From: a virus
Strand: one strand, 5' to 3'
Length of the DNA stretch: 60,247 nt
Virus record (IMG/VR): IMGVR_UViG_3300030380_004437
Location: 1-60,247 of that record
Shown here: positions 16,436 to 31,273 of the stretch, piece after piece
Numbering within the stretch: position 1 is the first letter of the stretch
Layout of the letters: every line of letters begins with the position of its first letter
Translations under genes and position numbers: made by a program
Notes under the pieces: generated by a model
Database searches by the model: none
Told to the model about the DNA's origin: nothing
Seen by the model: the letters and a program-made list of their open reading frames with translations, nothing else

Positions 16436-17953
16436 TTAATAATAACTTATTTTCTTACGATATAGTACTTCTTCTTCATAATCTGATGGAAGTTGTACAA
16501 AACCACCTTGCCTAAATCTCATCAATGCTTGTGTTGTTGAGTCTACTAAATCGTCATGGTCACCTGCAGGAAAAGCTGCACATTCTTCTATTACATCAGT
16601 TGCCCATTTAGTATCAGGATGCCACACCATACCACTTTCAAATAATGGGGCACATGCATTTACCCTCGCAACTTTATCATTTCCTTTTGACGGAGTGAAG
16701 TTTTGTACAGGTATACCTATGTTTCTTAATTCTTGGGTAAGAGGTAGTCCACTTGCTTTTGCTTCTATTATGGTTACGTCAGGTTCCCAATGTTTGTATT
16801 GATCAAGTGCTATTGATTTTAATTCAGGGAAAGTATATTTACCTTTCACAACATCTAATAAAATTATGTGTGGGCTATTACCACTATAAACTTCATCACC
16901 ACCTAATCTACCTTCTGGGTAAAATACTCCCCATGTCGTAATAGCTGAGTAGTCACTGAGTTCTCTTTTTAAAAAAGCTGTATCATAACTTTGTATGAGG
17001 TAGTCACATTTAGGTGGTTTAGGGTTTGGCCACTCTTTCCACCATTCTCTTTTTATAAGTGCACCTTCTTCACTTGAAGGATTCTGCATATATTGTGCAT
17101 GCCACTTAGGTCCACCTCGCAAAGATGCTTTTACGCTTTCTAATTCTTCTAGTTGCCAATACTCTGGCCAAAGTGGTTTACCACTCGGTAGAATAGCAGG
17201 TAGCTCAATAACTTCCCATTGATCTGCTTTAGGATCACGAGCTGAGTCTTTTAATAACCTACCTGTTAAATCATTGACGTTCCATCTTGTCATTACTATA
17301 ACGATGGCTCCTCCAGGTTGTAGACGTTGCCTTGGTCCAGAGGTGTACCATTCATAAGTATCTTCTAACGCAACTTTTGATAATGCGTCTTGCTCTGAGT
17401 GAGGGTCATCAATAATAAATAGATCCGCACCACGACCAGCTAACGCACCACCAGTTCCCACTGCATAATATTCTCCACGTTTTTTAGCATCACGAGTATC
17501 TTGAGTTTCCCATTTACCTGCAGCTTTTGAATCTGGGTTTAAGTTCACGTTGGGGAAAACAGTTTTAAAATCATCTGTGTCAATTAAGTCACGAATCTTT
17601 CTACCAAACTTTACTGCTAAGTCTGCCGTGTGGGTTGCTTGTAGTATTTTTAAACTTGGATTACGACCTACTAAGTAAGCAGGAAAAAAATGAGAAGCAA
17701 ACTCTGACTTCGTATGACGAGGTGGCATGTTTATAATTAATCTTTTTATTTTGCCTTTAGCTATACGGTCAAATGCTTCTGCCATTTTTACATGATGAGC
17801 ACCTTCTATAAATCCTGGCCATTGTGATTTTACAAACTCAAGAAAATTATTTTGACAGGAATCTACTCGTTCTATTTCTTTGAGTCTTTCGGTGAGTTGT
17901 AAATGTTCCTTCAGTACATCTTCAGGAAGATCATTTAAATCGTAGTTGCTCAT
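16436..17953 (-). CDS. terL: Large terminase subunit (packaging ATPase/nuclease)
   Basis: 505 residues. The ATPase part has a variant Walker A (MPPRHTKSE, residues about 76-84) and a Walker B ADLFIIDDPHSE. The coupling phrase VMTRWNVNDLTGRLL is also present. The nuclease part begins with SYDTAFLK and has further acidic residues (PDVTIIEAKASG, DHDDLVDSTTQAL). It pumps DNA into the prohead and cuts the concatemer. The small subunit is encoded 12 kb away at 29641-30159. The start overlaps the MscS-like gene stop by 4 bases. Confidence 0.95.
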   Translation of the reverse strand: MSNYDLNDLPEDVLKEHLQLTERLKEIERVDSCQNNFLEFVKSQWPGFIEGAHHVKMAEAFDRIAKGKIKRLIINMPPRHTKSEFASHFFPAYLVGRNPSLKILQATHTADLAVKFGRKIRDLIDTDDFKTVFPNVNLNPDSKAAGKWETQDTRDAKKRGEYYAVGTGGALAGRGADLFIIDDPHSEQDALSKVALEDTYEWYTSGPRQRLQPGGAIVIVMTRWNVNDLTGRLLKDSARDPKADQWEVIELPAILPSGKPLWPEYWQLEELESVKASLRGGPKWHAQYMQNPSSEEGALIKREWWKEWPNPKPPKCDYLIQSYDTAFLKRELSDYSAITTWGVFYPEGRLGGDEVYSGNSPHIILLDVVKGKYTFPELKSIALDQYKHWEPDVTIIEAKASGLPLTQELRNIGIPVQNFTPSKGNDKVARVNACAPLFESGMVWHPDTKWATDVIEECAAFPAGDHDDLVDSTTQALMRFRQGGFVQLPSDYEEEVLYRKKISYY

Positions 17954-18330
17954 TTTTCTTTATTGAGTATCTTACGTATCTTTTCTGCTTTTTCATCAGC
18001 TGTGTCTGCGTGTAGTTCGCTATCTACAACTTTCTCTAATTTTAAGTATGGTATTCTCTCATTCGGTACGTACCTCCATGTGTAGCCTTCTTCACCATAT
18101 ACACCAAAGACAGTTTGATTTAAACCTATTTTTATTATCATTGCAGTTTGGTCTTCTAGCAATACTTTATCACCTTCATCAAACGGTGAAAATAATCTAA
18201 AGAATAGACCTTTCATAAAACTTACTGCGTAATCTTTTACAGCTAGACCAAGAAGCATGGTCAGTAAGAAACCGATAAACTGTATATAGAAGTCGTTTAA
18301 CTCTATTTCAAACATGGTCATGTCGTACAT
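17950..18330 (-). CDS. Small MscS-like membrane protein
   Basis: 126 residues with one strong membrane segment (about residues 14-35) followed by SPFDEGDKVLLEDQTAMIIKIG and VPNERI at residue 88-93. The order 'F-x-x-GD-x-V, hydrophobic strand, PN' is that of the MscS channel beta domain, with the membrane bundle cut to one helix. A short acidic tail follows. It sits between the ART-like gene and terL with 4-base and 1-base overlaps. It may be a membrane or lysis-related factor. Channel activity is uncertain. Confidence 0.55.
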   Translation of the reverse strand: MYDMTMFEIELNDFYIQFIGFLLTMLLGLAVKDYAVSFMKGLFFRLFSPFDEGDKVLLEDQTAMIIKIGLNQTVFGVYGEEGYTWRYVPNERIPYLKLEKVVDSELHADTADEKAEKIRKILNKEK

Positions 18331-19193
18331 TAGTCATCAGAAAAATACTTTCTCAATCTTTTCAAGTTTTGTTCTAATTTGTACGGATCCATTCTTTCTG
18401 CTACCTCATCAATAATTTTGTCGTCTATTTTTCCCGTAGATTTTCTTATTTTCATGAGATCATCATTTAATACAATCATCCTTTGGATAGGTTGGTCTAC
18501 ACCTGTGCCTTTCGTCATATTGAATATTAAAGAACCTACTCCTTGTTTCTGTAGGGCAGCACTTATTTGAGGATCAAAGTTTTTAGGGAAATACATCATA
18601 TTTGGATTTTCCATAAAATTCGTTATGTCTCTAGCTTGAAACTGTGACGGTGTGACTGATTCTATACGAGCATTTTTCCCAGGTTTCATATTTTTAAGCA
18701 TGGTTGCTATACCAAAGGGTAAGTTTTCTACATCATACATACCTTTAGTGTTGACGTCTACAGTGTACACTTTACCAAATTTTTTGCCTCTGTTTGCATA
18801 TGCAGCTGCATCTGTAAAATCGTCGGTGAGATATACTCCGCCTCTTTGCATTGATGGGTTAAGTACGTTTGGCATGCCTTCTACTTGTTTGGTAAGTTTT
18901 GTTATACCTTGGTTGAGTGAACCATGGAGCATGGGCTTTGCTTCATTCAATATAAATTTACCTGCTCCTTTAATGGGTGCTGCTGCAGGAATAACTTCAA
19001 AACCTGCAAGAACCTGATCGCCTAGCGACGCATCAGGTGATAACGTCATGTATGAATAACCAGGAATGAGAGAAGCCAGACCTTCTAGTTTATTTAATCC
19101 TCTGTATGATTTCCTTGGGTCAATGCCTAAGTATTCTTCAAGTGCTAATGCTACCCTGTCTTTTCTGGTTGGTTTGGTTCCCACTACTGCCAT
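18330..19193 (-). CDS. ADP-ribosyltransferase-like protein
   Basis: 287 residues. The central part reads LHGSLNQGITKL (His90), then GGVYLTDDFTDAAAYANRG (residues 118-136), a hydrophobic strand FGKVYTVDVNTKG, and a later QKQGVGSLIFN. This is the pattern of ART-fold domains that occur in polyvalent phage proteins, with H...Y in place. The third catalytic residue (Glu or Gln) is not obvious. It is the first gene of the packaging operon. If active it might modify host proteins or be carried in the virion. Confidence 0.5.
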   Translation of the reverse strand: MAVVGTKPTRKDRVALALEEYLGIDPRKSYRGLNKLEGLASLIPGYSYMTLSPDASLGDQVLAGFEVIPAAAPIKGAGKFILNEAKPMLHGSLNQGITKLTKQVEGMPNVLNPSMQRGGVYLTDDFTDAAAYANRGKKFGKVYTVDVNTKGMYDVENLPFGIATMLKNMKPGKNARIESVTPSQFQARDITNFMENPNMMYFPKNFDPQISAALQKQGVGSLIFNMTKGTGVDQPIQRMIVLNDDLMKIRKSTGKIDDKIIDEVAERMDPYKLEQNLKRLRKYFSDD

Positions 19194-19251
19194 AATTCAA
19201 AAGTAGAAAAATTTTGCAAAAAAATTTTTACAACATCTTCTATAACGTCGA

Positions 19252-19280
19252 ATGATATAGGGTATATGGGGAAAAGTAAA
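19252..19280 (-). promoter_or_regulatory. Promoter for the terminase/structural operon
   Basis: Minus strand TTTACT, 17 bp, TATCAT, about 60 bases before the first gene of the packaging operon. It shares the -35 box and spacing with the promoters at 20915, 27612, 31295 and 45701, which supports it as a real member of that class. Confidence 0.55.
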
Positions 19281-19312: not shown

Positions 19313-19327
19313 GGGTGGGTGGGAGGG
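19313..19327 (+). other. G-quadruplex motif 1
   Basis: GGGTGGGTGGGAGGG has four G-triplets with single-base loops, the most stable type of intramolecular quadruplex. It is striking in an AT-rich genome. It lies about 215 bases before the first copy of the duplicated plus-strand cassette, as motif 2 lies before the second copy. Confidence 0.8.
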
Positions 19328-19449
19328 TGCAGGCACGCTATAAGGGGGGTAGCCCCCTAGTATAAGTTAAGTAAAAAGTAAAGGCATTTTTTCCTATATA
19401 ACTATAAGTTATTTACTTATATACTTTTAAATATACTTATTATTTACTA

Positions 19450-19477
19450 TTTACTTTTAAGTTAATAAGCGTATTAT
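19450..19477 (+). promoter_or_regulatory. Putative promoter of cassette copy 1
   Basis: TTTACT, 16 bp, TATTAT. The same boxes and an AGCGTATTATA context recur at 20064-20091 before copy 2, so the element was duplicated with the cassette. Confidence 0.5.
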
Positions 19478-19541
19478 AAACGTATTAGCTTAATTATTAA
19501 CCCTTTAAATTTAGCTAATTTAATTAACTAAAGGGCTTACT

Positions 19542-19745
19542 AAGGTACTTAAAATAGCTACTAAGTATAACTTAAACGCTAAAATAGTACTAGGTAATAC
19601 GGCTAAACTAGGCGAGAAAAACTCGGCTAAGTACAAAAGCTGGGTAGGTAAAACGGTTAAAGAAGTTTTTACTACTGGGCAAGGTACGGTTGATATAACC
19701 TATGCTATTAAAGTGGGCGGTATAAAACCTGTCCCTACCGAATAA
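19542..19745 (+). pseudogene. Start-less copy of the 20155-20364 gene
   Basis: A 67-codon open frame encodes a protein clearly homologous to the one at 20155-20364: shared KYNLNAKIVLGNTAKLGEKN, AKYKSWVGKTV, TGQGTVDITYAIKV. At the position of the ATG in the second copy this one has AAG. An in-frame stop lies 8 codons upstream, with no ATG, GTG or TTG between. The body is intact and has many synonymous differences, so it has stayed under selection until recently, or is started in an unusual way. It is either a recent pseudogene or a non-canonically initiated gene. Confidence 0.6.
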
Positions 19746-19760
19746 AACGGTTTTAGTAAC

Positions 19761-19784
19761 GGCTAGGGGGTAAAACCCCTAGCC
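19761..19784 (+). terminator. Hairpin after cassette copy 1
   Basis: GGCTAGGGG and CCCCTAGCC form a perfect 9-bp stem with a 6-base loop, 15 bases after the stop of the start-less copy. The downstream bases are not a clean T-run, so termination efficiency is uncertain. Confidence 0.6.
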
Positions 19785-19942
19785 CTATTACTATATAAAG
19801 AACATACGAGCATCCGAACAACCATCTTTCTAAGATCTGCTAGCAGATCTGAATTGCGTGGCACATGCTTCATGTATTGGGGGCAGACGTTTTGATCTTT
19901 GTGTGTGTGTCATGCGATCTGATCTGATGTGTTATCTACTTT
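19785..19942. repeat. Non-coding repeat element, copy 1, with an 18-bp palindrome
   Basis: AGATCTGCTAGCAGATCT at 19833-19850 is a perfect palindrome. After it come TGGCACATGCTTCATG, GGGGGCAGACGTTTTGATC, a GT run and GATCTGATCTGATG. Related words recur at 20455-20580 and 20980-21120. I find no gene here. A structural RNA, an origin-like region or regulator sites are possible. Confidence 0.5.
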
Positions 19943-19962
19943 GGGTGGGTGGGTGGTGAGGG
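19943..19962 (+). other. G-quadruplex motif 2
   Basis: Four G-triplets (GGGTGGGTGGG, then TGGTGA, then GGG). It sits about 190 bases before cassette copy 2, mirroring motif 1. Confidence 0.75.
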
Positions 19963-20063
19963 AGCCGTATTATACCTTACATTTACTTTGGGGTAAAGCT
20001 TTTGATTTACTTATAACTTTTTATTATACCGTATAGCTAGAACTTATATACTTAACTTTCCGC

Positions 20064-20091
20064 TTTACTTTCATATTTATTAGCGTATTAT
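20064..20091 (+). promoter_or_regulatory. Putative promoter of cassette copy 2
   Basis: TTTACT, 16 bp, TATTAT, about 60 bases before the ATG of the 20155-20364 gene. The leader between promoter and gene (TTATTAACCCTTTAAATT) is shared with copy 1. Confidence 0.5.
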
Positions 20092-20154
20092 ATACCTAAT
20101 GTTTAGTTATTAACCCTTTAAATTAAACATTTCCGACTAATAAAGGGTACTATA

Positions 20155-20364
20155 ATGGTGATTAAAATTAGTACTAAATACGATCTTAACGCTAAAATAG
20201 TTTTAGGTAGTAATATAGGACGCCTTGGTGAAAAAAACTCAGCTAAATACAAAAGCTGGGCTAATAAAACCGTAGCGGAAATATTCAAAACGGGTCAAGG
20301 ATCTGTTGACATTACCTACGCTATTAAGGTAAAAGGTATTCAAGAAGTACCTTCAGCTAAGTAA
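20155..20364 (+). CDS. 69-residue protein, intact copy of a duplicated gene
   Basis: Small, basic, soluble protein starting MVIKISTKYDLNAKIVLG and containing AKYKSWANKTVAEIF and TGQGSVDITYAIKVKG. I recognise no family. It has its own promoter-like element, and a terminator follows, so it is a monocistronic plus-strand unit inside an otherwise minus-strand genome. The upstream ribosome site is weak (AAAGGG). Conservation between the two copies shows that the protein sequence matters. Confidence 0.65.
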   Translation: MVIKISTKYDLNAKIVLGSNIGRLGEKNSAKYKSWANKTVAEIFKTGQGSVDITYAIKVKGIQEVPSAK

Positions 20365-20375
20365 GGCTGGGAACT

Positions 20376-20407
20376 GAGGGGGTGTAAAGCCCCCTCTCTT
20401 CTTTTTT
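20376..20407 (+). terminator. Rho-independent terminator of cassette copy 2
   Basis: GAGGGGG and CCCCCTC form a 7-bp stem with loop TGTAAAG, then TCTTCTTTTTT. It lies 12 bases after the stop. Confidence 0.8.
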
Positions 20408-20454
20408 ACTACCCACGTCGATCCGATCGTGGTACGTGGTATTCTCTCTCTCAA

Positions 20455-20580
20455 TGCGATCTGATCTGAAATGGTTATTGTAGTTGTAGTTGTGGTTGTT
20501 GTAATTATATAGGGGGAAGATGTTTTGATCTTGGGGGCACGGATTTTGATTTGACAATCCTTATGCCGATCCGATCTGAA
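20455..20580. repeat. Non-coding repeat element, copy 2
   Basis: Contains GCGATCTGATCTGAA, GGGGGAAGATGTTTTGATC and CCGATCCGATCTGAA, matching words of the elements at 19785-19942 and 20980-21120. A GTTGTAGTTGTGG purine/pyrimidine run lies between them. Open frames here are low-complexity and lack ribosome sites, so I see no gene. Confidence 0.45.
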
Positions 20581-20596
20581 GCAGGTATATAAGAAG

Positions 20597-20618
20597 AGGG
20601 GCACTCTTCAGCACCCCT
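20597..20618 (-). terminator. Terminator after the 20633-20866 gene
   Basis: On the minus strand AGGGGTGC pairs with GTGCCCCT (eight pairs including two G-U), loop TGAAGA, then CTTCTTATAT. It lies 15 bases past the stop codon. Confidence 0.65.
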
Positions 20619-20632
20619 AATCTCATTCCCAG

Positions 20633-20866
20633 TTATTTAAAAGTCAGGAATCCACACTTTAGATCATAGACCAAGTCCGCCATTACTACAAGTCTTGGTT
20701 TAAGATCAAGAGCCTCTTGAGGCGTCTTCCCATTAAGTATAGGTTGACGCTCTGCGTTGTGCACAGCTCTTGGCGTTTTACTAGTTGCCACTAGTTCACG
20801 ATCCATATTTTCACGAACATAAGCGTTATTTATAACGATCGGTTTAGTTAAGTTTTTAGTAGTCAC
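20633..20866 (-). CDS. 77-residue protein with the PR-HN-ER / DLKCGF module
   Basis: Starts with GTG, supported by a strong ribosome site (AAGGAGGG). The part from residue 28 (TSKTPRAVHNAERQPILNG) to the end (DLVYDLKCGFLTF) is homologous to the C-terminal part of the protein at 27252-27569 and more distantly to that at 30713-31273. All three genes have the same type of upstream promoter. It is a monocistronic unit between a promoter at 20915 and a terminator at 20597. Function unknown. Confidence 0.7.
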   Translation of the reverse strand: MTTKNLTKPIVINNAYVRENMDRELVATSKTPRAVHNAERQPILNGKTPQEALDLKPRLVVMADLVYDLKCGFLTFK

Positions 20867-20914
20867 AATGACCCTCCTTAATTAATAGCTAAAACCATTT
20901 TTAACTATTTATAT

Positions 20915-20943
20915 AGTATAGCTAAGAACAATATGAAAGTAAA
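20915..20943 (-). promoter_or_regulatory. Promoter of the 20633-20866 gene
   Basis: Minus strand TTTACT, 17 bp, TATACT. It combines the -35 box of one promoter class in this genome with the -10 box of the other, about 50 bases before the start codon. Confidence 0.7.
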
Positions 20944-20979
20944 GCTAGATGTAAAGTTATTTAACGAAGATCACATCGT

Positions 20980-21130
20980 GTACTACACGTAGATCACAGT
21001 GCCATGGCACATGGTTCATGGGTATGTGTGTGTGTAACCCAGTTCGGATTGTGATGGGGGAAGATGTTTTGACGATGAACTCTGGACCATGGACCTAGAT
21101 CTGATCTGATTTCCGATCGCATGTGGTTCC
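20980..21130. repeat. Non-coding repeat element, copy 3
   Basis: Contains CCATGGCACATGGTTCATGG, a GT run, GGGGGAAGATGTTTTGA and AGATCTGATCTGAT, paralleling copy 1 in the same order. The surrounding bases hold several CCATGG palindromes. Open frames through it lack ribosome sites and look random. I see no gene between 20944 and 21536. Confidence 0.5.
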
Positions 21131-21370
21131 TGGACCATGGGATTGTGATCGGGTGCCATGATTTGATGATTGTGATCCTATTGCCCTATTGACGATTGTC
21201 CATAATTCATGGTTCTTTGTCCTTTCCTCAAGTATTTTGTGCCTTGTGTCAGAGTCCGTGGTTTCCTGGTTTCTTATATAGGGTCTAGAATACCTGTAAA
21301 TCATACTGCAATTATCTTTCCCATGCTTTATCTGCACCATGCACCACGACCCAAACACCACCCATTCTCA

Positions 21371-27251: not shown

Positions 27252-27569
27252 TTATTTTGAAAGTTTTTCTACTATCTCGATAAATCCACGGTCGACATCG
27301 TATTTGATGTCTTGGTAAGCGTACCTTCGTGACTCAAGTGCTTCACGTACAGTCTTCTTATTGAAGTCTAGTACACGCTCTTGATTATGTGTCACTCTAG
27401 GTATTTTACCAGTTGTGACTATAAAGTGGTCAGGATTATACTTTCCTGGCTTTATAACCTTTTCACCAGACTTAGCAATCTCTGCTAGGTTGGTTGCGAC
27501 AGCTAACTTTATGTTAGCTACCTTTTTAGTTGTGGCAGGTTTAACTACCTTCTTAACACTTTTTTTCAT
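27252..27569 (-). CDS. Basic protein with the PR-HN-ER / DVDRGF module (105 aa)
   Basis: A basic N-terminus (MKKSVKKVVKPATTKKVANI) is followed by a module TTGKIPRVTHNQERVLDF ... IKYDVDRGFIEI shared with 20633-20866 and, in its last 30 residues, with 30713-31273. Such short Lys-rich proteins with this ending recur in marine phages. It has a class II promoter (TTTACT, 17 bp, TATGCT) and a ribosome site (AGGAG). DNA binding is plausible. Confidence 0.65.
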   Translation of the reverse strand: MKKSVKKVVKPATTKKVANIKLAVATNLAEIAKSGEKVIKPGKYNPDHFIVTTGKIPRVTHNQERVLDFNKKTVREALESRRYAYQDIKYDVDRGFIEIVEKLSK

Positions 27570-29633: not shown

Positions 29634-29662
29634 AGTATAGCTAGGATGTATTATCATCACTA
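29634..29662 (-). promoter_or_regulatory. Early promoter, class I variant, before 29323-29604
   Basis: Minus strand TAGTGA, 17 bp, TATACT, overlapping the end of the small terminase gene. The -35 box has one change from the array consensus. Confidence 0.6.
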
Positions 29663-30159
29663 GCATTTTTCGTTATTATCCTTTGCTCCTCTTCTTCTAG
29701 TTCTTCAGGCTCCACTTCTATTATCTTGCCAGCAGGTAATACACCACCTGTATCATAATATAGTTGCTTCATACGTTCAAGCACTTCTTCTTTTGACATG
29801 GTATCTACTCTGTTTACAGTAAGTTCACTTCTGTTTACATATAGACCTGCAGCTTTACCACGAGCCACCTCTGCTGTTACTGCTGCAGAGAAAGCGTTAT
29901 TACGCATAGCACCGTCACGAATATCTTTTAAATCCTTTAAATGAGTTCCTAAACTAAGTTCTGCCTTATCTGCAGCTTTTTCTTGTAACTCACCTATTCT
30001 CTTTTGAACTAATGGATTATCTTTACTCGTTAGCACTGTACCAGCTTTCCCTGCATTCTTCTCGCTATACCCAGCGTGTTTTGCAGCATCTTTTTTACTC
30101 ATGCCTTTAGCGACATTTTGAGCAAACTTTTCTTGTTTTGGTGTTAGCTTATCCGCCAT
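29641..30159 (-). CDS. terS: Small terminase subunit
   Basis: 172 residues. The N-terminal LTPKQEKFAQNVAKGMSKKDAAKHAGYSEKNA is the helix-turn-helix phrase of the Terminase_2 family, which binds the packaging site. It is followed by an oligomerisation helix (PLVQKRIGELQEKAADKAEL) and an acidic C-terminal tail. It lies 12 kb from terL and within the early region, unlike the usual neighbouring order, so expression may be earlier than that of terL. The start overlaps the upstream gene by 16 bases. Confidence 0.85.
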   Translation of the reverse strand: MADKLTPKQEKFAQNVAKGMSKKDAAKHAGYSEKNAGKAGTVLTSKDNPLVQKRIGELQEKAADKAELSLGTHLKDLKDIRDGAMRNNAFSAAVTAEVARGKAAGLYVNRSELTVNRVDTMSKEEVLERMKQLYYDTGGVLPAGKIIEVEPEELEEEEQRIITKNASDDNTS

Positions 30160-30712: not shown

Positions 30713-31273
30713 TTACACCTCTTCTGCGTATTTGGATTTTACGTCATACTTTATATCACCTAGTTTTAGATCACTGTGTTTTTCTAACAACTCAGCAACG
30801 GTTAGTTCACCAGTGTAATAAAGTTGTCTGGTTTTATTTTTATCAGATGAAGGAACTTTATCAGTAGCTTTCACCTTACTCTCCATGTTAATGCTTGACA
30901 CACGAACCACTTTCTTCTGCACAGGTTTCCTAAACGTAGGTTTCTTTACTACGTTTGAGTGAAACGCTACAGAGTGTGGGTCAAAGTCAGAGTCATTAGG
31001 CTCTTTAGCCAGTGGTAGAAGTAATTTATAGAGTTTTCTGCATGCGTCTTGTTTATCTTTGTACTTAAACTTTTTCAAGTTATGGCACTCAATAATTTTA
31101 TCTAGATGTTCCACAGTAAACCATGAAGGATAGGCAAATTTATTAGGGTCACCTAATATAAGTGAGCCACCTCTAATTCTACCTGACTTTACACTGTTCA
31201 CACGTACTACTCTTTTGTAAGTATTACTTATTGGTGTATCTAGAACAAATACTATAGCTTCTTCGTCTAACAT
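30713..31273 (-). CDS. Protein with C-terminal IKYDVKSKY module (186 aa)
   Basis: N-terminal part is beta-rich (AIVFVLDTPISNTYKRVVRV), the middle has helix EHLDKIIECHNLKKFKYKD, and a Lys-rich linker precedes the C-terminal ELTVAELLEKHSDLKLGDIKYDVKSKY. This last part matches the C-terminal module of 27252-27569 and 20633-20866. It has a class II promoter. Possibly DNA-binding. Confidence 0.6.
   Translation of the reverse strand: MLDEEAIVFVLDTPISNTYKRVVRVNSVKSGRIRGGSLILGDPNKFAYPSWFTVEHLDKIIECHNLKKFKYKDKQDACRKLYKLLLPLAKEPNDSDFDPHSVAFHSNVVKKPTFRKPVQKKVVRVSSINMESKVKATDKVPSSDKNKTRQLYYTGELTVAELLEKHSDLKLGDIKYDVKSKYAEEV

What the first reader, a model, noticed from the sequence alone, without database searches (positions are those of the whole stretch)
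19313..20407. Duplicated plus-strand cassette, each copy preceded by a G-quadruplex motif
Seen: a G4 motif, a TTTACT promoter, a conserved leader (TTATTAACCCTTTAAATT), a small gene and a hairpin occur twice in tandem. The two proteins are clearly homologous, with many differences in DNA, so the duplication is not recent. Plus-strand G4 motifs with one-base loops are exceptional in an AT-rich phage genome. They could stall replication or act in transcription.
Basis: seen in the sequence. Interest (0 to 1): 0.75.

Follow-up and report, generated by a model that had tools for sequence, protein, structure and literature searches.

The report
Polar G-tract signal upstream of terminase
The two G-rich blocks are real and conserved, but they look less like switches for the duplicated little gene than like one form of a one-way DNA signal that many ocean SAR11 phages carry just upstream of their DNA-packaging (terminase) gene; what reads the signal is not yet known.

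Summary
Two G4-capable blocks (the only ones in the window, both + strand), two sigma70-like promoters, two identical 18-nt leaders, two homologous small ORFs (73% aa identity) and two hairpins lie in tandem about 615-630 bp apart. Corrections: only G4-1 has all one-base loops; copy 1 has no ATG/GTG/TTG and its conserved first codon is ATA where single-copy relatives have ATG; only copy 2 ends in a U-tailed terminator.

The interpretation needs revising. Close relatives that lack this gene still carry a G-run on the same strand at the same place, upstream of the late (terL) operon. In the wider HTVC023P-type pelagiphages a sharply bounded 27-bp element, GGGWGGGTGGGCCCNNRGKTCACRAGC, often occurs several times per contig: 187 of 188 distinct copies lie upstream of terL on the strand opposite terL, although flanking genes point in every direction. 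So the G-tract looks like a polar, genome-level DNA signal, not a cassette-bound promoter switch. Packaging initiation is my first choice, replication origin second (DnaA boxes are enriched beside some copies). Intramolecular G4 folding is not the conserved property of the wider family. I found no description of the element in the papers held. That the window's G4s are homologous to the 27-bp element is inferred.

The parts
19313..19327 (+). G-tract 1 (G4-capable), upstream of the late operon and of cassette 1
   Evidence: exact 22-base match in 7 IMG/VR contigs; a conserved island between variable flanks
19943..19962 (+). G-tract 2, duplicated with cassette 2
   Evidence: exact 20-base match in 3 IMG/VR contigs
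19343..19358 (.). GGGGGG/CCCCC hairpin next to G-tract 1, no U-tail
   Evidence: present in single-copy relatives
19450..19477 (+). sigma70-like promoter of cassette 1, TTTACT-16-TATTAT
   Evidence: 9/12 consensus match
20064..20091 (+). sigma70-like promoter of cassette 2, TTTACT-16-TATTAT
   Evidence: 9/12 consensus match
19494..19511 (+). leader copy 1
   Evidence: near-invariant in the 9-sequence alignment
20107..20124 (+). leader copy 2
19554..19745 (+). cassette gene copy 1 (63 codons), first codon ATA, AAGG 8 nt upstream
   Evidence: purifying selection (pS 0.07-0.14, pN 0-0.02)
20155..20364 (+). cassette gene copy 2 (69 aa, ATG start)
19754..19793 (+). hairpin after copy 1, no U-run
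   Evidence: z -4.0
20376..20406 (+). intrinsic terminator after copy 2
19252..19280 (-). candidate late promoter TTTACT-17-TATCAT, between G-tract 1 and the first late gene
   Evidence: 9/12 consensus match; not otherwise tested
19206..19226 (-). late-operon leader (AAAAATTTTGCAAAAAAATTTTT type), shared with relatives that lack the cassette
18330..19193 (-). first gene of the late operon that leads into terL (16436-17953)
20633..20866 (-). convergent 77-aa gene, possible distant relative of the cassette protein
   Evidence: hhalign P 0.0023, probability only 13%

Best explanation
The G-tracts are this clade's version of a polar, multi-copy cis-acting DNA signal that HTVC023P-type pelagiphages keep in the accessory interval upstream of terL. 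It is read on DNA by a phage machine that needs to know the direction of the genome. My first choice is the terminase: the element marks where packaging starts and which way it runs (about 35%). Replication initiation is second (about 25%). The cassette gene is an accessory gene that sits next to the signal and was tandemly duplicated together with it. SHOWN: two G-tracts, exact conservation inside the clade, persistence of G-runs without the cassette, strand lock of the 27-bp element to terL, its random orientation to local genes, its confinement to one interval. INFERRED: that the window's G4 blocks are homologous to the 27-bp element, that a protein reads it, and that the protein is terminase.
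For: Strand and place: 187 of 188 distinct GGGWGGGTGGGCCC copies are upstream of terL on the opposite strand, none downstream; looser motif 157:1 and 31:0 upstream. Not a promoter or terminator part: the two flanking genes take all four orientations about equally (47/58/59/44). terS itself flips (9 of 41 loci on terL's strand) while the element stays opposite terL. Sharp 27-bp boundary, as expected of a binding site, and recurrent 55-bp pairs. About half of the copies lie 85-300 nt upstream of terL. Confined: 8 of 8 sites in 3.5 kb of a 55-kb contig, 4 of 4 in 1.6 kb of complete 023Pt_psg01. Relatives L055, L057, L058, L059 and L062 without this gene keep GGGGGGTGGG-type runs on the same strand about 115 nt from the late leader. 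G-tract 1 is a conserved island in the clade. Only 3 hits in 84,980 prokaryote genomes, 2 of them on contigs with terL.
Against: No physical genome ends, TerS binding or packaging data were found for these phages. Copies spread over up to 5 kb with genes between them, which is loose for a pac site. HTVC027P, nested among element carriers by TerS, has no G-run but has CRAGC arrays in the same interval. HTVC023P and DSL-LC04 lack the G-run motif anywhere. DnaA boxes beside the element in about 10 loci point to replication instead. In the window terS lies about 10 kb away (29641-30159), so terS adjacency is not general. Contigs are related, so counts are not independent events.
Confidence: 0.37

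Rival explanations
1. Replication origin: the elements are iteron-like direct repeats bound by an initiator, with the G-rich strand fixed relative to fork direction and, in some phages, DnaA boxes alongside.
For: TTATCCACA boxes: 17 in 72.7 kb around elements versus a mean of 1.1 for permuted 9-mers, with tandem boxes 11 nt apart directly after the element in several loci; about 20-fold denser near elements than elsewhere. Fixed polarity and direct repeats fit an iteron origin. GATC is dense in the window's interval (15 in 20001-21000 against 164 in 60 kb).
Against: Boxes occur in only about 10 of 85 loci and none near the window's G-tracts. Some permuted words (promoter-like TATCCCATA) are more enriched still. 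Copies are dispersed over kilobases, unlike iteron clusters. GC skew gives no origin signal beyond gene direction.
Confidence: 0.25
2. Transcription signal: the G-tract on the template strand blocks or times transcription entering the late operon, or is an upstream activator site for late and early promoters.
For: The terL-proximal copy lies just upstream of a conserved late promoter (AGAGTTTGATTTAGAC...TAAAAT); G-tract 1 lies about 33 bp upstream of the candidate late promoter. A template-strand roadblock against late-direction RNA polymerase would also be locked to terL. Opposite-strand genes gp33/gp34 in this interval of HTVC027P have their own expression cluster (PMC12753301).
Against: Distance to terL and its promoter varies by over 100 bp; many copies lie between convergent genes, away from any promoter (36-59 of about 160-210); three G-runs plus GGGCCC are not expected to fold an intramolecular G4.
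Confidence: 0.2
3. Direct-repeat recombination substrate: the element is the join at which accessory genes are swapped in and out and cassettes duplicated, like the mobile regulatory cassettes of T4-type phages or the pilE G4.
For: Cargo genes differ between relatives, the window's duplication includes the G-tract, and contigs break often here (31 of 79 contig ends within 1 kb upstream of terL versus 4 downstream). Direct repeats would keep one orientation.
Against: Cargo direction is random, flanking DNA is not shared between copies, and nothing shows exchange at the element itself. Breaks can be plain assembly failure.
Confidence: 0.13
4. One reading: each G4 is a functional part of its own cassette, a switch for the small gene.
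For: Every cassette copy with upstream sequence has a G-tract about 100-125 bp upstream of its promoter.
Against: G-runs persist without this gene; orientation in the wider group follows terL, not genes.
Confidence: 0.05

Closest known systems
pac/cos packaging-initiation sites of tailed phages (general knowledge: P22, P1, Sf6, lambda cosB)
   Same: polar, near the terminase genes, sometimes several short direct repeats bound by TerS
   Different: copies dispersed over up to 5 kb with genes between; no end mapping; TerS binding untested
Iteron origins with tandem DnaA boxes (general knowledge: P1 oriR, lambda ori)
   Same: direct repeats in one orientation; DnaA boxes beside some copies
   Different: repeats not clustered; DnaA boxes in a minority; no initiator identified
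pilE G4 of Neisseria gonorrhoeae (PMC3547852)
   Same: a G4-forming sequence beside promoters at a variable locus
   Different: that G4 works through an sRNA starting in it and drives pilin antigenic variation; here the wider consensus is not expected to fold alone and no sRNA was shown
T4-type mobile regulatory cassettes (title seen in reference lists; details from memory; not tested here)
   Same: promoter plus stem-loop units around small accessory genes, duplicated and shuffled
   Different: there the promoter is part of the unit; here the element ignores promoter direction

Membership tests
G-quadruplex regulatory switch | four G-runs able to fold within one strand, conserved as such | tested here: not met
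   met in the window clade, but the wider consensus GGGWGGGTGGGCCC has three runs plus CCC; HTVC027P has no such run
G-quadruplex regulatory switch | folding shown by CD/NMR or polymerase stop | not testable with these tools
   needs bench work
phage pac/cos site | location by the terminase genes and fixed polarity | tested here: met
   187/188 upstream of terL, opposite strand
phage pac/cos site | virion DNA ends map to it | not testable with these tools
   no reads; contig ends upstream of terL are frequent but scattered, with no sharp peak
phage pac/cos site | bound by TerS | tested here: inconclusive
   element carriers group together in a TerS tree, with HTVC027P nested without G-runs; the tree also follows overall kinship and sampling; binding itself not testable
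iteron-type origin | direct repeats with DnaA boxes | tested here: inconclusive
   direct repeats yes; DnaA boxes in about 10 of 85 loci, not in the window
iteron-type origin | cognate initiator and replication initiation at the site | not tested
   no initiator sought; no replication data
promoter/operator element | consistent orientation relative to the genes it would serve | tested here: not met
   all four flanking-gene arrangements about equally common
Rfam RNA family | covariance model match | tested here: not met
   no hit in the window or five element loci

The most novel reading that the evidence does not exclude
A previously undescribed polar DNA signal, in many copies and locked to the direction of the late operon but not to any neighbouring gene, tells a phage machine (terminase, replisome or recombinase) which way the genome runs in one of the ocean's most abundant phage groups.
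Probability: 0.4. Interest if true: 0.75.

Novelty: new variant of a known kind. Interest (0 to 1): 0.6.

Why it matters
HTVC023P-type pelagiphages are widespread SAR11 phages, and nothing was found in the held papers on how they package or start replication. A short, polar, computable motif beside terL gives a directly testable handle on that, and a cultured relative (HTVC027P) marks what happens when the G-runs are missing. It also corrects a natural misreading: a striking G4 next to a gene need not serve that gene.

Tried and rejected
Structured leader: the CCCTTTA...TAAAGGG pairing folds in copy 2 (z -1.9) but not in copy 1 (z +1.1); the leader is conserved as sequence, not clearly as structure. 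Function of the cassette protein: no Pfam, PHROG (best E 0.096) or phage-record relative, no convincing PDB sequence match; AlphaFold model pLDDT 81 with no Foldseek match better than E 0.27. Rfam: nothing. Shared physical end: contig ends upstream of terL show no sharp peak. Host motif: no hit in any record titled as Pelagibacter. Copy 1 as a dead pseudogene: not favoured, since pN is far below pS among four genomes, though translation from ATA is unproven. Literature: no held paper contains the element's core sequence.

Full report
WHAT IS THERE. The window is a virus record of 60,247 b, a relative of the SAR11 phages HTVC027P and HTVC023P, of 023Pt_psg01 and of Phage DSL-LC04 (terL 56-62% identity). 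Almost all long ORFs run on the minus strand. Between the late operon (first gene 18330-19193, leading to terL 16436-17953) and a minus-strand 77-aa gene (20633-20866) lie two plus-strand units: G-tract, sigma70-like promoter TTTACT-16-TATTAT, identical 18-nt leader, small gene, hairpin. The two G4-capable blocks are the only ones in the window; randomised windows give 0.02-0.08.

CORRECTIONS. Copy 1 has no standard start. Single-copy relatives L015 and L034 begin with ATG GCT ACT AAG; the window, L002, L013 and L014 have ATA GCT ACT AAG at the same place with an AAGG 8 nt upstream. The frame is under purifying selection (pS 0.07-0.14, pN 0-0.02), so translation from ATA is plausible but unproven. 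Copy 2 starts four codons further upstream with ATG, and its codon at the old start is ATT. Only copy 2 has a U-tailed terminator. The G-tracts lie about 100-125 bp upstream of the cassette promoters and are not in the cassette RNA.

DOES THE G-TRACT BELONG TO THE CASSETTE? Inside the clade it is exact (22 bases in seven IMG/VR contigs; 20 bases in three for G-tract 2), a conserved island between variable flanks. L015 and L034 have one cassette and one G-tract. But no copy of this gene was found by profile search in L055, L057, L058, L059 or L062 (L059 has a different small gene in the place), and all carry runs such as GGGGGGTGGGGGG on the same strand about 115 nt from the shared late leader of the AAAATTTTGCAAAAATTTTT type. 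The G-tract therefore goes with the head of the late operon.

THE WIDER FAMILY. Around terL genes about 60% or more identical, short-loop triple G-runs occurred 31 times upstream of terL on the opposite strand and never on the same strand. The recurring sequence is a sharply bounded 27-bp element, GGGWGGGTGGGCCCNNRGKTCACRAGC, with no conservation outside it. Of 188 distinct core copies on loci with terL, all are upstream of terL and 187 are on the opposite strand, mostly 85-300 nt away or spread over the next 5 kb. Flanking genes take all four arrangements about equally, and terS can flip without the element flipping. Pairs 55 bp apart recur. On complete or long records the sites fall in one short interval. 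Only three hits exist in 84,980 prokaryote genomes, two of them on contigs with terL. No held paper contains the core sequence, and no Rfam family matches.

WHAT IT PROBABLY DOES. A site that ignores gene direction but not genome direction is most simply a signal for a machine that moves along, or initiates on, the genome. I favour terminase because the commonest copy sits just upstream of terL and carriers cluster by TerS, though that tree also reflects kinship and sampling. Replication is a serious rival: TTATCCACA boxes are about 20 times denser near elements than elsewhere, often as tandem pairs, but in only about 10 loci and not in the window. A template-strand roadblock on late transcription is also compatible with the polarity.

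RELATION OF THE WINDOW'S BLOCKS TO THE ELEMENT. Same interval, same strand relative to terL, same GGGTGGGTGGG start; the 3' halves differ (AGGGTGCAGGC against CCCNNRGKTCACRAGC). Homology is inferred. HTVC027P, with CRAGC arrays on the same strand but no G-runs, suggests that the G-runs themselves are dispensable in at least one lineage.

THE CASSETTE PROTEIN. No family match, a moderate AlphaFold model without fold match. The neighbouring 20633-20866 protein has paralogues in the window (27252-27569, 30713-31273) and a weak profile similarity to the cassette protein (P 0.0023, probability 13%). In HTVC027P opposite-strand genes of the same interval (gp33, gp34) form an extra early-to-middle expression cluster (PMC12753301), which makes early expression of the cassettes a fair guess.

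LIMITS. Contigs are related, so counts are not independent; small-ORF calls near elements are noisy; the window comes from an uncultured virus record and no physical or RNA data were available for it.

Noticed in passing
window 19554: Copy 1 of the gene keeps ATA where single-copy relatives have ATG, in four genomes, under purifying selection: a possible conserved AUA start.
   Followed up: partly
window 21854, 22193, 22564, 23669, 23978: Five copies of a palindrome (AGTATAGGTAAGATCCTAAAAGATGCCTATACT type), upstream of early minus-strand genes: a candidate operator set of an early regulator.
   Followed up: partly
window 20633-20866, 27252-27569, 30713-31273: Three minus-strand genes form a paralogous family of unknown function; the cassette protein may be a distant member.
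   Followed up: partly
window 20050-20077 and 20930-20957: The promoter regions of cassette 2 and of the convergent 77-aa gene are an 82% inverted repeat of 28 nt, so they share a promoter type.
   Followed up: no
window 19800-19960, 20440-20630, 20990-21200; ends of L013 and L014: Fast-changing intergenic repeats (GATCTGATCTGAT, GGGGGNANNNTTTTGATCTT, TG runs) with dense GATC, and contig breaks in relatives.
   Followed up: no
window 19969-19997: A leftward promoter-like site (TTTACC-17-TATAAT, 10/12) would start transcription within the complement of G-tract 2, antisense to cassette 1; the sequence looks kept in L002 and L003.
   Followed up: no
window 18330-19193: First late gene has a weak, below-cutoff match to ADP-ribosyltransferase ART-PolyVal (E 0.009).
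   Followed up: no
L178, L190, L194, L200, L252: Tandem DnaA boxes TTATCCACA 11 nt apart, several directly beside the 27-bp element.
   Followed up: partly
L070 2400-2550, L007 6900-7013 and others: Conserved late promoter AGAGTTTGATTTAGAC...TAAAAT with AGGGRTCC just upstream, and in several phages a CAGAA...TTCTG leader hairpin before terL.
   Followed up: partly
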